A DNA stretch of 64,000 bases from contig PACT01000039.1 of the NCBI GenBank assembly GCA_002700285.1, positions 13,328-77,327 of the forward strand, written 5' to 3'. Shown here in pieces: positions 30,002 through 49,297 of this stretch. A program made the position numbers and the translations under genes. The stretch comes from Crocinitomicaceae bacterium (GTDB lineage Bacteria > Bacteroidota > Bacteroidia > Flavobacteriales_D > Sanyastnellaceae). A model generated the notes under the pieces. The model made no database searches, was not told the origin of the DNA, and was given only the letters and a program-made list of their open reading frames with translations. Numbering within the stretch: position 1 is the first letter of the stretch; every line of letters starts with the position of its first letter.

Positions 30002-32401
30002 ATGAACGAAGCACCCAAAGAGCCTGAAGAGACTAAAGAAAACAACGTTTCGCAGGACATTAAAGAGACTCCACAAGTGGAGCAGCCAACTGAAGAAGTG
30101 GCACAGCCAGAAGTAGAAACAAAACAGCCAGTTGCTGAAGAAGTTGCAGAAGAGGCAGCTACAGAAGCGGTTGAGGAGGTCGTAGCTGAGGAAGTTGCTG
30201 AAGAGGCAGCTCCTGAAGCAGTTGAGGAGGTCGTAGCTGAGGAAGTTGCTGAAGCGGCAGCTCCAGAAGCGGTTGAGGAAGTCGTAGCTGAGGAAGTTGC
30301 TGAAGCGGTTGAGGAAGAAGTTGCTGAAGAGGCAGCTCCAGAAGAGGTTGAAAAGGCAGAACCAGTCAGTGAGGAACCTAGACCAACTGAACCTCGTGAG
30401 ATTTCAGTTCCAACTGGTGATTTTGACTGGGATTCATTTGAATCTGATGTAGATGAATTATCAAGCGAGGACCGTACGAAACTCGAAGATTTATATGAGG
30501 CTAACCTCACACTGATTGAGGACAAACAAGTTGTGACAGGTACTGTTATCAATGTTGGAAAGAAAGAAGTGGTTGTTAATATTGGCTATAAGTCAGAAGG
30601 TGTTATTACAGCATCTGAATTCCGTTACAATCCAGATCTAAAGCCAGGCGATACTGTTGCTGTTTTTGTCGAGAAAACAGAGGATGCGAATGGCCAACTC
30701 GTCGTAAGTCATCGTACCGCACGTGTTTATGAGGCTTGGGGCAAAATCAATGAAGCGAAAGAAGAAGATCTTATTATTAATGGTACCGTTAAATGCCGTA
30801 CCAAAGGTGGATTAATCGTGGATGTATTTGGTCTTGAAGCCTTCTTGCCAGGTTCACAGGTTGATGTAAAGCCTATACGCGACTTTGATGAGTATGTAGG
30901 CAAAGAGATGGAGTTCAAGGTTGTCAAAATTAACCAAGAATTTAAAAACGTTGTTGTTTCTCATAAAGCGCTTATTGAAGCTGAACTGGAAGAGCAGAAA
31001 CGTCTTATTATTAAGGACCTTGAAAAAGGTCAAGTCCTTGAAGGAACAGTTAAGAACGTTACTTCTTACGGAGTATTCGTTGACCTTGGAGGTGTAGATG
31101 GACTTGTTCATATTACTGACATGAGCTGGGGACGCGTTGGTCATCCAGAAGAGTTGGTTGAACTAGATGCGAAGATCAATGTTGTAATCCTAGACTTTGA
31201 TGACGACAAGCGTCGTATCGCTCTAGGCATGAAGCAGTTAACTCCGCACCCATGGGATTCTCTAACTGAAGATCTTACAGAAGGAACAAAGGTTCAAGGT
31301 AAAGTTGTTGTGATGGCTGACTATGGTGCATTTATTGAAATTGCACCAGGTGTAGAAGGTCTATTGCACGTGAGCGAAATGTCTTGGTCACAACACCTAC
31401 GTTCAGCACAAGACTTCCTAACTGTAGGTCAAGAGGTCGAGTGTGTGTTATTAAGCATAGACAGAGAAGAGCGTAAAATGTCACTTGGCCTCAAGCAAAT
31501 GAGCGTGGATCCATGGGCAGAAATTGAGACACGCTATCCGATCAACTCTAAGCAGAAAGGTAAAGTTCGCAATTTCACTAACTTTGGTTTATTCGTTGAG
31601 CTTGAAGAAGGCATTGATGGCTTGGTTCACATTTCAGATCTTAGTTGGTCTAAAAAGATCAAGCATCCATCTGAATTCTGCAGCGTAGGAGACGAAATCG
31701 AAGTTGTAGTGATGGAGCTTGACAATGAGAACCGTCGTATGAGTCTCGGTCACAAGCAGATAGAAGAGAATCCGTGGGAAGTATTTGAAACAATATTTGC
31801 CGTTTCTTCAAAACATCAAGCTACAGTTGTGAAAATTGAGGGAGCGAATGCATTAATCGCGCTTCCTTATGGTCTAGAAGGTACATGTCATATCAAGCAC
31901 CTGAATAAAGCAGATGGAGAATCCTTAGAAGTAGATGCTACTGCTGAATTTGTTGTTCTTGAATTTAACCGTAATGCTAAGAGAATTACAGTTAGTCACT
32001 TACGTACTCACGAAGAAGGCCCCGCAAAGAAAGAGCGTAAGCCACGTTCAAATAGCGGAGGTTCTAGTGGTTCATCAACAATGATGGATTCTATCAATAA
32101 GAAGACTGAAAAGAGTACACTTGGTGATTTAGATATTTTATCTAAACTTAAGCAAACCATGGATTCGTCTACGCTTGCACCTGAGCCAGAAGCGACTCCA
32201 GCAGCGAAGGAGGAAGCTCCTGCAGCGAAGAAGCCAGCAGCGAAGAAGCCAGCAGCGAAGAAGCCAGCAGCGAAAAAAGCAGCAGCGAAGAAGCCAGCAG
32301 CGAAGAAAGCAGCAGCGAAGAAGCCAGCAGCGAAGAAAGCAGCAGCGAAGAAGCCAGCAGCGAAGAAGCCAGCAGCGAAGAAAGCTGCGGATAAGAAGTA
32401 A
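30002..32401 (+). CDS. rpsA: 30S ribosomal protein S1 with acidic N-tail and Lys/Ala/Pro C-tail
   Basis: 799 residues from this ATG. An ATG at 29990 and a TTG at 29960 are also in frame; I prefer 30002 because a purine-rich stretch (AAGGGAAGC) precedes it and MNEAPKEPEE looks natural. Six S1 OB-fold repeats are visible at about 175-245, 258-330, 343-416, 428-500, 516-588 and 601-670 (for example GTVKNVTSYGVFVDLGGVDG and GKVRNFTNFGLFVELEEGID). S1 binds mRNA on the small subunit. Two additions are unusual: residues about 48-115 are Glu/Val/Ala repeats of 17 residues, and residues about 741-795 are eleven AAKKP or AAKKA units like the tail of histone H1. Codon use fits very high expression. A strong terminator follows. 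Confidence 0.93.
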   Translation: MNEAPKEPEETKENNVSQDIKETPQVEQPTEEVAQPEVETKQPVAEEVAEEAATEAVEEVVAEEVAEEAAPEAVEEVVAEEVAEAAAPEAVEEVVAEEVAEAVEEEVAEEAAPEEVEKAEPVSEEPRPTEPREISVPTGDFDWDSFESDVDELSSEDRTKLEDLYEANLTLIEDKQVVTGTVINVGKKEVVVNIGYKSEGVITASEFRYNPDLKPGDTVAVFVEKTEDANGQLVVSHRTARVYEAWGKINEAKEEDLIINGTVKCRTKGGLIVDVFGLEAFLPGSQVDVKPIRDFDEYVGKEMEFKVVKINQEFKNVVVSHKALIEAELEEQKRLIIKDLEKGQVLEGTVKNVTSYGVFVDLGGVDGLVHITDMSWGRVGHPEELVELDAKINVVILDFDDDKRRIALGMKQLTPHPWDSLTEDLTEGTKVQGKVVVMADYGAFIEIAPGVEGLLHVSEMSWSQHLRSAQDFLTVGQEVECVLLSIDREERKMSLGLKQMSVDPWAEIETRYPINSKQKGKVRNFTNFGLFVELEEGIDGLVHISDLSWSKKIKHPSEFCSVGDEIEVVVMELDNENRRMSLGHKQIEENPWEVFETIFAVSSKHQATVVKIEGANALIALPYGLEGTCHIKHLNKADGESLEVDATAEFVVLEFNRNAKRITVSHLRTHEEGPAKKERKPRSNSGGSSGSSTMMDSINKKTEKSTLGDLDILSKLKQTMDSSTLAPEPEATPAAKEEAPAAKKPAAKKPAAKKPAAKKAAAKKPAAKKAAAKKPAAKKAAAKKPAAKKPAAKKAADKK
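30143..30295 (+). repeat. Three tandem 51-bp units in rpsA
   Basis: Copies at 30143-30193, 30194-30244 and 30245-30295 are nearly identical and encode 17-residue acidic units (VAEEAAPEAVEEVVAEE). Partial copies continue to about 30350. The unit length keeps the frame. Confidence 0.88.
32222..32386 (+). repeat. Eleven tandem 15-bp units in rpsA
   Basis: The unit GCAGCGAAGAAGCCA and its variant ending in AGCA repeat exactly eleven times, encoding AAKKP or AAKKA. Being in frame, copy number can change without breaking the gene. Confidence 0.92.
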
Positions 32402-46537: not shown

Positions 46538-49207
46538 TTATTCTTTGACTTTATCATCTTTTGACGGCCCTTTTTTATTTGCAGGTTTCTTGGGACTTTT
46601 CTTTTTCTTCGCTGGTTTCGATGTGCTTATAATGTCTTCATCTGCGCCATCAGGCATTGTTAAAACGCCACCTTTTACAACAGTAATTTTGAGATTATCC
46701 TCACCTAAAGTGTATTCAGCTTTTAACAAGTCTCCTTCTTCAACAGACGAATTGATGATTTCTTCGGCAAAGGGATCTTCCAAATGTTTTTGTATTGCTC
46801 TTTTTAGAGGTCTAGCACCGTATTTCTCATCATATCCTTTGTCTACGATGTAATCTTTTGCAGTTTCGGAAACTTCAAGTCCATATCCCAAACTTATCAC
46901 CCTGTTCTTTAGAGCCGCGAGCTCTAAATCTATGATCGAGTGAATGTGTTCTCTATTTAGTGATTTAAATAAAACCACATCATCAATACGATTTAAAAAC
47001 TCAGGTGCAAAGGCTCTCTTTAGTGCTTTCTGTATAACCCCAGCTTTATTTTGATCCTCATTGTTTTCCTTAGCAGATGTGTTAAATCCCACCCCTGTTC
47101 CGAAATCAGCAAGCTGTCGAGCGCCAATATTTGACGTAAGAATCATCACTGTATTTCTGAAGTCAACTTTCCGCCCCAGGCTGTCAGTCATTTGACCATC
47201 ATCTAGTGCTTGAAGAAGGAGGTTAAAAACATCGGGATGTGCCTTTTCAATTTCATCAAGAAGTACAATAGAGTAGGGGCGACGGCGAACTTTCTCAGTG
47301 AGTTGTCCGCCCTCTTCATAGCCTACGTATCCTGGAGGTGCTCCTACCAAACGCGTCACGGCAAATTTTTCCATGTACTCACTCATGTCAATTCTAATGA
47401 GCGCATCATCACTGTCAAACATAAACTTGGCGAGTTCCTTCGCAAGTTGTGTTTTACCTACTCCTGTGGGGCCTAGGAAGATAAATGAACCGATCGGCTT
47501 ATTTGGATCTTTAAGTCCAGCTCTGTTCCGCTTTATTGCCTTCACAACTTTATTTATCGCCTCTTGTTGACCGATTACTTTGGTCTCAATATTTTTATCC
47601 ATCCTGGCGAGCTTTCCGCTTTCTTTCTCCGCGATTCTTTGAACAGGGATGCCCGTCATCATGGCAACAACATCTCCCACGTGATCTTCTGTCACAGAAA
47701 CTCTAAGGTTTTTGCTCTCTTCATCCCACTGGCGCTTGGCAGTGACTAAACGCTCATTTAAATTTCGCTCAGTATCTCTAAGTCTTGCCGCTTCTTCATA
47801 GCGTTGGCTTCTCACAACCCTGATCTTCTCTTCTTTGATCCTGTCAATTTCTTCTTCAATGTCAAGGATTTCTTGAGGGACATGAATGTTATTCAGGTGG
47901 ACCCTACTTCCCACTTCGTCTAAAGCATCTATGGCTTTATCTGGAAGATGTCTGTCAGTAATGTAACGCGACGTTAATTTCACACATGCACTTATGGCTT
48001 CGTCTGTGTAGATAACACTATGATGCTCTTCGTATTTGTCCTTAATGTTGTGTAAAATCTGTTTTGTCTCTTCTATCGAAGTAGGCTCCACTAAAACCTT
48101 TTGAAAACGACGTTCAAGGGCACCATCTTTTTCGATATGCTGACGGAATTCATCAAGTGTTGTTGCACCAATACATTGGATCTCTCCTCTTGCAAGTGCG
48201 GGTTTAAACATATTCGATGCATCGAGTGATCCACTGGCACCACCTGCACCAACAATTGTGTGGATTTCGTCAATAAACAGAATGACATCTGGAGATTTTT
48301 CAAGTTCATTCATGACAGCCTTCATTCTCTCTTCAAACTGACCGCGGTACTTCGTTCCCGCAACGAGAGAGGCAACATCTAAAGTGACAATGCGTTTTCC
48401 ATAAAGAACACGGCTGACTTTCTTCTCAATTATTCTCAGGGCCAAACCCTCCGCAATCGCGCTTTTGCCTACACCGGGTTCGCCAATAAGAATTGGATTG
48501 TTTTTCTTTCTTCTTGACAGAATCTGAGAAACACGTTCGATCACTTTTTGACGGCCGACGATGGGGTCTAATTTCCCCTCTTCAGCCATCTTCGTTAAAT
48601 CTCGTCCGAAATTATCTAGGACTGGCGTTTTACTTTTGGTATCACCTTTTCTTTTCGAGACACTGTTTGAAGATCCGGAGCCCCCACCTGTGGATGGTTC
48701 TTCATCAGGGCCCATGTCGTTGTCTGACATTGGCGCCTCTAGTCTAGGAGAAGAAGTCGCACCTGAATTTTCTGAGATCATATTTTCAAATTCCTCTTTG
48801 GCAATTTCGTAATCAATGTTAAATGCATGTAAGGATTTTGTTGCAACATTGTCTTCATCTTTGAGGATGCTCAGCAAAAGATGCTCTGTGCCTATGACGG
48901 GGCTTTTAAAAATCTTAGCTTCTAAATATGTAATCTTCAGAATTTTCTCAGCCTGCTTTACGAGCGGCATGTTGCCTGCACCTAATGGACTTCCTCCAGA
49001 AGGTCTGATTGAACTTTCGATAAGTTTACGGAGTTTTTGAATGTCACAATTGAGCCCTTCTAAAATTCTAATTGCTGTCCCTTCGCCTTCCTTAATTAAC
49101 CCTAACAACAGATGCTCAACACCTATGTACTTGTGTTCTAGCCTCAAAGCTTCCTCACGACTAAACGTGATTACTTCTCTAACCCGTGGTGAAAATTTCG
49201 CGTCCAT
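46538..49207 (-). CDS. clpC: ATP-dependent Clp protease ATPase subunit ClpC
   Basis: 889 residues from this ATG; the frame extends to a TTG at 49243, which is less likely because MDAKFSPRVREVITFSREEA matches family starts. Two Clp-N repeats fill residues 1-150. AAA-1 has Walker A GEPGVGKSAIAEG near 240, a UVR-type middle segment follows (SQRYEEAARLRDTERNL), and AAA-2 has GPTGVGKTQLAKE near 577 and VLLDEIEKAHPDVFN. ClpC unfolds proteins for ClpP. The C-terminus carries a Lys-rich tail (KPAKKKKSPKKPANKKGP) not usual for the family. Transcription probably starts from the promoter at 49298-49326. Confidence 0.95.
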   Translation of the reverse strand: MDAKFSPRVREVITFSREEALRLEHKYIGVEHLLLGLIKEGEGTAIRILEGLNCDIQKLRKLIESSIRPSGGSPLGAGNMPLVKQAEKILKITYLEAKIFKSPVIGTEHLLLSILKDEDNVATKSLHAFNIDYEIAKEEFENMISENSGATSSPRLEAPMSDNDMGPDEEPSTGGGSGSSNSVSKRKGDTKSKTPVLDNFGRDLTKMAEEGKLDPIVGRQKVIERVSQILSRRKKNNPILIGEPGVGKSAIAEGLALRIIEKKVSRVLYGKRIVTLDVASLVAGTKYRGQFEERMKAVMNELEKSPDVILFIDEIHTIVGAGGASGSLDASNMFKPALARGEIQCIGATTLDEFRQHIEKDGALERRFQKVLVEPTSIEETKQILHNIKDKYEEHHSVIYTDEAISACVKLTSRYITDRHLPDKAIDALDEVGSRVHLNNIHVPQEILDIEEEIDRIKEEKIRVVRSQRYEEAARLRDTERNLNERLVTAKRQWDEESKNLRVSVTEDHVGDVVAMMTGIPVQRIAEKESGKLARMDKNIETKVIGQQEAINKVVKAIKRNRAGLKDPNKPIGSFIFLGPTGVGKTQLAKELAKFMFDSDDALIRIDMSEYMEKFAVTRLVGAPPGYVGYEEGGQLTEKVRRRPYSIVLLDEIEKAHPDVFNLLLQALDDGQMTDSLGRKVDFRNTVMILTSNIGARQLADFGTGVGFNTSAKENNEDQNKAGVIQKALKRAFAPEFLNRIDDVVLFKSLNREHIHSIIDLELAALKNRVISLGYGLEVSETAKDYIVDKGYDEKYGARPLKRAIQKHLEDPFAEEIINSSVEEGDLLKAEYTLGEDNLKITVVKGGVLTMPDGADEDIISTSKPAKKKKSPKKPANKKGPSKDDKVKE

Positions 49208-49297
49208 ATCGTCTTCGGTTCTTTCTTTTCTTGTGAATATCAACTGCCCTTATATAGATAACGAATAAAAACAAAATTCGTTGCTTAAGAGTTATTT

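What the first reader, a model, noticed from the sequence alone, without database searches (positions are those of the whole stretch)
30002..32401. Ribosomal protein S1 with a repeated acidic tail at one end and a histone H1-like basic tail at the other
Besides six S1 domains the protein has three 17-residue acidic repeats encoded by 51-bp tandem units, and eleven AAKKP/AAKKA units encoded by 15-bp tandem units. Both arrays keep the frame and could vary in number between strains. Opposite charges at the ends could pair with each other, bind RNA, or drive condensation of mRNA and ribosomes. I know of no described function for this combination.
Basis: partly seen in the sequence, partly recalled or inferred. 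Interest (0 to 1): 0.6.

Follow-up and report, generated by a model that had tools for sequence, protein, structure and literature searches.

The report
Ribosomal protein S1 with repeat-grown tails
This is the ordinary RNA-binding ribosomal protein S1 of an uncultured flavobacterium, whose two floppy ends have grown by tandem duplication into an acidic tail and a lysine-rich tail; its relatives carry similar tails of ever-changing length and make-up, so the design is real but belongs to a known kind of decoration.

Summary
Window 30002-32401(+) encodes a six-domain bS1. Its N-terminal tail (140 aa, net charge -42) carries three near-identical 17-aa units (51 bp); its C-terminal tail carries eleven AAKKP/A units (15 bp).

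It is not unique. Of 84 fetched S1 genes of the family, 82 have an acidic N-tail. A lysine-rich block occurs in 30 of 76 scorable C-tails, often beside an acidic block. Units differ between species, and all 76 arrays found keep the frame. In the closest relatives, contigs stop inside (G001) or next to (G002, G013) these arrays, and the units differ, so copy numbers here are uncertain.

N-tail acidity and C-tail basicity do not covary (72 genes, rho -0.08), so end-to-end pairing has no support. AlphaFold2 gives both tails as disordered. The constant element is a short motif, TLGDLxxLxxLKxxM, in 160 of 161 distinct sequences, just before the variable C-tail.

Most likely the basic block adds weak, non-specific RNA affinity and the acidic tail is a charged bristle; neutral repeat growth is a strong rival. 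Alanine-, glutamate- and lysine-rich tails on ribosomal proteins are already described; S1 with both was not found in ten paper searches.

The parts
30002..32401 (+). rpsA, 30S ribosomal protein S1 (bS1), 799 aa, six S1 domains; most likely start ATG 30002
   Evidence: start supported by the starts of relatives
30002..30421 (+). acidic disordered N-terminal tail, residues 1-140, net charge -42
   Evidence: pLDDT under 50 over most of 1-134
30134..30305 (+). 51-bp tandem array (3.4 copies, 92%) encoding three 17-aa acidic units and part of a fourth
30422..30442 (+). FDWDSFE element; F141 and W143 invariant in 94 aligned S1 sequences; probable ribosome (uS2)-docking end of the protein (inferred)
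   Evidence: domain 1 of E. coli S1 on uS2 from PMC6847099 passages
30422..32008 (+). conserved core, residues 141-669, holding the six S1 domains
32114..32161 (+). conserved C-terminal motif STLGDLDILSKLKQTM, residues 705-720, predicted short helix at 710-721
   Evidence: pattern in 160 of 161 distinct cores
32162..32398 (+). variable C-terminal tail after the motif
32222..32386 (+). 15-bp tandem array: eleven AAKKP/AAKKA units (TRF boundary 32222-32382)

Best explanation
It is the bS1 gene of an uncultured Flavobacteriales lineage. SHOWN: both ends, predicted to be disordered, have been lengthened by in-frame tandem duplication of A/P/E-rich and A/P/K-rich codons; the tail types recur through the family while units and copy numbers turn over. 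INFERRED: the lysine-rich block is a non-specific electrostatic clamp for RNA at the free end of S1, away from the end that sits on the ribosome. It would raise local affinity for mRNA leaders in a phylum whose ribosomes do not use Shine-Dalgarno pairing. The acidic N-tail, just before the conserved FDWxxFE element that probably docks S1 on uS2, would be a solvated charged bristle that limits unspecific RNA sticking and aggregation. Selection would act on bulk charge and length, not on sequence, and the two tails would act separately. The fixed short motif TLGDLxxLxxLKxxM before the C-tail would bind an unknown partner.
For: bS1 identity. Both tails low-confidence, no secondary structure. Acidic N-tail (at least 40 aa, net charge -5 or lower) in 82 of 84 fetched family genes; in the other two (L149, L152) the frame runs off the sequence and the Met chosen is internal. 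Lysine-rich block in 30 of 76 scorable family C-tails, in genera g1, g3, g5, g11 and g18. Unit turnover with frame kept: N-arrays in 32 of 84 with 12 different periods, C-arrays in 44 of 84, 76 of 76 periods divisible by three. The C-tail also gains another module: three S1 of genus g18 (L167, L170, L173) carry a helix-hairpin-helix segment after the motif; the two that were scanned, L173 and L167, pass the PF14520 cut-off, and L241 shows the same segment by eye. Hc2, built of lysine-rich pentamers with mainly Ala, Val, Thr and Pro, binds DNA, also RNA, and varies in length in frame (PMC2848022 passages). Supplementary F. johnsoniae bS1 raised initiation on an SD-less mRNA two-fold but had little effect on rpsU mRNA (PMC9976891 passages).
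Against: No binding data. The lysine-rich block is absent from 46 of 76 scorable family S1, and its presence needs at least nine changes on the tree, so it is dispensable. In the 30 family S1 that have it, the net charge of the whole C-tail runs from -13 to +22, median 3, because an acidic block often lies beside it. In L194 a lysine-rich block sits at the N-terminus instead, so position is not fixed. Neutral slippage would also give frame-keeping turnover.
Confidence: 0.45

Rival explanations
1. Neutral low-complexity growth: replication slippage lengthens disordered ends of an abundant protein that tolerates them; composition reflects what is soluble and harmless, with no added function.
For: Units and copy numbers change between the closest species; the lysine-rich block comes and goes, at least 9 changes on the tree; differences among the eleven 15-bp units are silent or P/A; uS2 of some relatives (L201, L206) carries similar EAAPAEE-type tails.
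Against: The acidic charge of the N-tail is kept in 82 of 84 family genes although the units differ. No array has a period that is not a multiple of three (76 of 76), but for N-arrays selection on the downstream core alone would enforce this.
Confidence: 0.37
2. The two oppositely charged ends pair with each other or between molecules and drive condensation of ribosomes and mRNA.
For: This one protein separates charge strongly: net C-tail +22 is the highest among X-free sequences, with N-tail -42. Ribosomal proteins are abundant in E. coli stress aggregates (PMC10534466 passages; S1 is not among the 20 rows of the table shown).
Against: No covariation of N acidity and C basicity: 72 genes rho -0.08; genus means rho 0.04; within genera rho -0.16. 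Relatives mix both charges in the C-tail.
Confidence: 0.06
3. The basic tail is a DNA or transcription-complex tether that keeps S1, and so the 30S subunit, near nascent transcripts.
For: Resemblance to HC2, a DNA-binding protein (35.9 bits, below the 40-bit cut-off); helix-hairpin-helix segments in the same place in g18 S1; the best fold matches include 30S mRNA delivery and expressome complexes.
Against: The HC2 match is below its cut-off and probably driven by composition; no partner is known; the fold match reflects the S1 core, not the tail.
Confidence: 0.09
4. The arrays are an assembly artefact.
For: G001 contigs end inside both arrays and G002 and G013 contigs end next to the C-array; S1 is missing at E 1e-100 from 6 of 14 genus genomes while uS2 is found in 14 of 14; undetermined residues in the tails of L005 (one) and L047, L052, L152 (runs).
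Against: Assemblies of many other species show the same kinds of tails. Only the copy number is in doubt.
Confidence: 0.03

Closest known systems
Bacterial ribosomal protein bS1, six-domain type of Bacteroidota (NF004953; PDB chain 9zcd_A)
   Same: Same core over residues 139-720, E 2.3e-214, including a TLGD..LxxLKxxM C-terminus.
   Different: 9zcd_A is 591 aa, with 12 residues before and 6 after the matched stretch; the window protein has 138 before and 79 after.
Low-complexity regions of bacterial ribosomal proteins (PMC6821194)
   Same: Mostly C-terminal, Ala/Glu-rich or Lys-rich, on abundant translation proteins (section 9 read).
   Different: That section names S2, S16, L25, S3, S6, L3, L10, L17, L19, L21 and L31 for bacteria, not S1, and not an acidic and a lysine-rich tail on one protein. 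Its supplements were not seen.
Histone H1-like protein Hc2 of Chlamydia and BpH1 of Bordetella (PF07382, PMC2848022)
   Same: Consecutive pentamers with two basic residues and mainly Ala, also Val, Thr and Pro, varying in number in frame (passages).
   Different: Hc2 is a stand-alone nucleoprotein; here the array lies in the last 63 residues of S1 and the HC2 score is below the cut-off (35.9 against 40).

Membership tests
bS1 (30S ribosomal protein S1) | six S1 (PF00575) domains in tandem and score above a curated bS1 model | tested here: met
bS1 (30S ribosomal protein S1) | the one bS1 gene found for this lineage in the assembly | tested here: met
   the other two hits are a PNPase-like gene (L002) and a fragment on contig C12 that looks cyanobacterial (L003); both named by eye, not by a search
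bS1 (30S ribosomal protein S1) | binds 30S through uS2 and binds mRNA | not testable with these tools
   inferred from the family; E. coli docking described in PMC6847099 passages
HC2 / histone H1-like nucleoprotein | score above PF07382 gathering cut-off | tested here: not met
   35.9 bits against 40
HC2 / histone H1-like nucleoprotein | binds DNA in the cell | not testable with these tools
   needs an experiment
Low-complexity regions of ribosomal proteins | terminal, A/E- or K-rich low-complexity segment on a ribosomal protein | tested here: met
   class described in PMC6821194

The most novel reading that the evidence does not exclude
S1 of this family is a platform with evolvable charge-block tails: tandem-repeat turnover tunes how strongly the ribosome's mRNA-capturing arm holds RNA (or clusters ribosomes) from species to species, in a phylum without Shine-Dalgarno initiation. 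The nearly constant TLGDLxxLxxLKxxM motif before the tail would be an undescribed docking site for a translation or RNA-decay partner.
Probability: 0.15. Interest if true: 0.6.

Novelty: new variant of a known kind. Interest (0 to 1): 0.28.

Why it matters
How Bacteroidota ribosomes find start sites without Shine-Dalgarno pairing is open, and S1 is a proposed substitute (PMC6847099 passages). A family in which the ends of S1 change charge and length so quickly is a natural experiment on what those ends do. The conserved C-terminal motif is a concrete, testable lead. The arrays probably also explain why rpsA drops out of some assemblies of this group.

Tried and rejected
End-to-end charge pairing: tested by covariation in 72 complete family genes and not supported. 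Twelve of 84 family rows (open ends or undetermined residues) were dropped before that count. The test is not corrected for relatedness, except by genus means and within-genus centring.

Complementary tail on uS2: for 13 of 30 uS2 loci my pattern gave a C-tail; for 17 it found nothing, so the test is incomplete. The window genome's uS2 C-tail has net charge +3 and the 13 run from -18 to +5: no strongly basic partner for the acidic S1 tail was seen.

Other proteins with the same arrays in the genome: none for AAKK[PA]AAKK (10 matches, all inside this S1), and none for the N-tail at E up to 1. The tools see only the held assembly, 94.9% complete.

Intramolecular docking of the conserved motif: AlphaFold2 gives a short helix at moderate confidence; I did not compute its contacts. 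Second S1 copy: L003 looks like a cyanobacterial S1 fragment.

Paper searches: ten, none showed these S1 tails; 'not in print' is limited to that library and to what the listings and passages showed. The review PMC11764897 on ribosomal and histone tails was seen in passages only and does not contain 'bS1'.

Full report
WHAT IS THERE. The gene at 30002-32401(+) encodes a 799-aa protein with six S1 domains (PF00575); it passes the curated bS1 model NF004953 (867 against 720 bits). It lies in a 2.5-Mb, 46-contig assembly, 94.9% complete with 6.0% contamination. The N-terminal 140 residues have net charge -42 and contain a 51-bp array of 3.4 copies. The last 63 residues have net charge +21 and hold eleven AAKKP/A units plus ADKK.

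IS IT UNIQUE? No. With the conserved core as query, 91 of 114 genomes of the family had an S1 match at E 1e-100 or better. In seven of the 91 the gene was split or only partly matched and was not fetched; the remaining 84 were read. With outgroups and the best 80 of 585 hits in named GTDB genomes (a capped list), 184 loci gave 161 distinct sequences. The nearest named records are Flavobacteriales bacterium UBA2619 (L043) and Bacteroidetes bacterium NORP19 (L044), both 92% over the core. In 82 of 84 family S1 the N-tail is at least 40 aa with net charge -5 or lower. In the other two, L149 and L152, the frame runs off the sequence and the chosen Met is internal; TRF still sees arrays there. The starting Met was chosen as the one giving the most acidic tail, which leans towards acidity. 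Of 77 sequences outside the family, 54 have N-tails of at most 20 residues and 20 have 40 or more; one of the long ones is basic (L194, +16).

THE C-TAIL IS A MIX. Scored as at least two [AT]xKK units after the motif and a basic block of 8 or more, 30 of 76 scorable family S1 carry a lysine-rich block (5 in g1, 5 in g3, 14 in g5, 5 in g11, 1 in g18) and 46 do not; 8 were left out for open ends or undetermined residues. The label needs at least nine changes on a FastTree tree of the 161 cores. Many C-tails place an acidic EAAPAEE-like block before the lysine block; over the 30, net C-tail charge runs from -13 to +22, median 3. The window's C-tail is the most basic of the X-free set, +22. Three S1 of genus g18 (L167, L170, L173) end instead in a helix-hairpin-helix segment; L173 and L167 were scanned and pass the PF14520 cut-off. 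L241, from another family, shows the same segment by eye.

THE CONSTANT PART. Before the variable C-tail lies STLGDLDILSKLKQTM. A regular expression for it matched 160 of 161 distinct cores; the miss, L146, has TFADL. In the 94-row alignment T706, G708, L713, L716 and K717 are invariant. A phylum-wide sample is less uniform. Of 80 genomes with a match I read 47 further S1. Of 16 in the same class, 9 have the full pattern, 4 only its TLGDL part, and 3 neither (by eye TFGD and TLGN variants). Of 31 in other classes, 10 have the full pattern (families f22, f30, f32, f34), 3 only a TLGEI/TLAEL part, and 18 neither. So it is a feature of part of the phylum. AlphaFold2 predicts a short helix at 710-721 at moderate confidence and gives both tails without structure (mean pLDDT 71.4, pTM 0.42, so domain arrangement is not reliable).

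REPEAT TURNOVER AND ASSEMBLY. TRF finds N-arrays in 32 of 84 family genes with 12 different periods (12 to 117 bp) and C-arrays in 44 of 84; all 76 have periods divisible by three. Outside the family, 16 of 77 sequences have any array. S1 is missing at E 1e-100 from 6 of 14 genus genomes, although uS2 was found in all 14. Three of the six, G001, G002 and G013, are the closest by pyrB, the gene downstream (95%). In G001 one contig stops in the N-array (EEVAEEVAEEVAEE...) and another in the C-array, which shows ten full AAKKP units plus part units at both ends, without the A variants of the window. In G002 the contig ends 22 residues before a C-array of ten units, three of them substituted (EAKKP, AAMKA, AARKP). 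In G013 the contig ends 600 bases before pyrB, about where the S1 stop codon would lie. In G011 the contig ends about 300 bases after the upstream gene with no S1 remnant found. So the arrays change between close species, and assemblies break at or beside them. The copy numbers in the window may be collapsed.

DO THE ENDS TALK TO EACH OTHER? If they paired, acidity at one end should follow basicity at the other. Over 72 complete family genes, the Spearman rho of the N acidic block against the C basic block is -0.08 (p 0.53); over genus means 0.04 (p 0.87); within genera (55 genes) -0.16 (p 0.24). Tail lengths do correlate (rho 0.56), without correction for relatedness. This gives no support to pairing.

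MECHANISM. Shown: bS1 with repeat-grown, predicted-disordered tails whose charge type recurs while sequence turns over. From literature passages: in E. coli, domain 1 of S1 sits on uS2 and domain 4 lies near mRNA positions -12 to -15; Bacteroidota lack Shine-Dalgarno sequences and S1 is a postulated substitute (PMC6847099 passages). Added F. johnsoniae bS1 raised initiation on one SD-less mRNA two-fold and hardly affected rpsU mRNA (PMC9976891 passages). Hc2, built of lysine-rich pentamers, binds DNA and RNA and varies in length (PMC2848022 passages). The best-supported reading is a tunable, non-specific RNA clamp at the C-end and an independent acidic bristle at the N-end (confidence 0.45 as a mechanism). 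Neutral growth is close behind (0.37).

KNOWN OR NEW. Section 9 of PMC6821194 reports 822 low-complexity regions in bacterial ribosomal proteins: 49% made of at least 70% alanine and/or glutamate, 9% with at least 30% lysine, the vast majority C-terminal. S1 is not among the proteins named there. Passages found by my terms in two papers on the S1 family (PMC6705787; PMC6566611) showed no such tails. The combination is therefore filed as a new variant of a known kind.

Noticed in passing
window 32114-32161; S1 loci: Motif TLGDLxxLxxLKxxM at the C-terminus of bS1: full pattern in 160 of 161 distinct sequences near this lineage, in 9 of 16 further S1 of the class and 10 of 31 from other classes of the phylum; no function found in my searches.
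   Followed up: partly
L167, L170, L173 (genus g18), L241: S1 C-tails end in a helix-hairpin-helix segment (LKKIEGIGPKIA...), in the place where other genera carry lysine repeats.
   Followed up: partly
window 46538-49243 (-): A ClpC-like ATPase (named from recall) also ends in a lysine/proline-rich tail (KPAKKKKSPKKPANKKGPSKDDKVKE).
   Followed up: no
L003 (G000 contig C12, 6-368): Fragment of an S1 gene that looks cyanobacterial (recall) in the same assembly; probably a contaminating contig.
   Followed up: partly
L194 (g33), L193 (g25): S1 of other families carries lysine-rich AAKKP or APAKK blocks in the N-terminal tail instead.
   Followed up: no
L201, L206 (uS2 genes): uS2 of some relatives has long EAAPAEE-type acidic C-tails, like the S1 tails.
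   Followed up: partly
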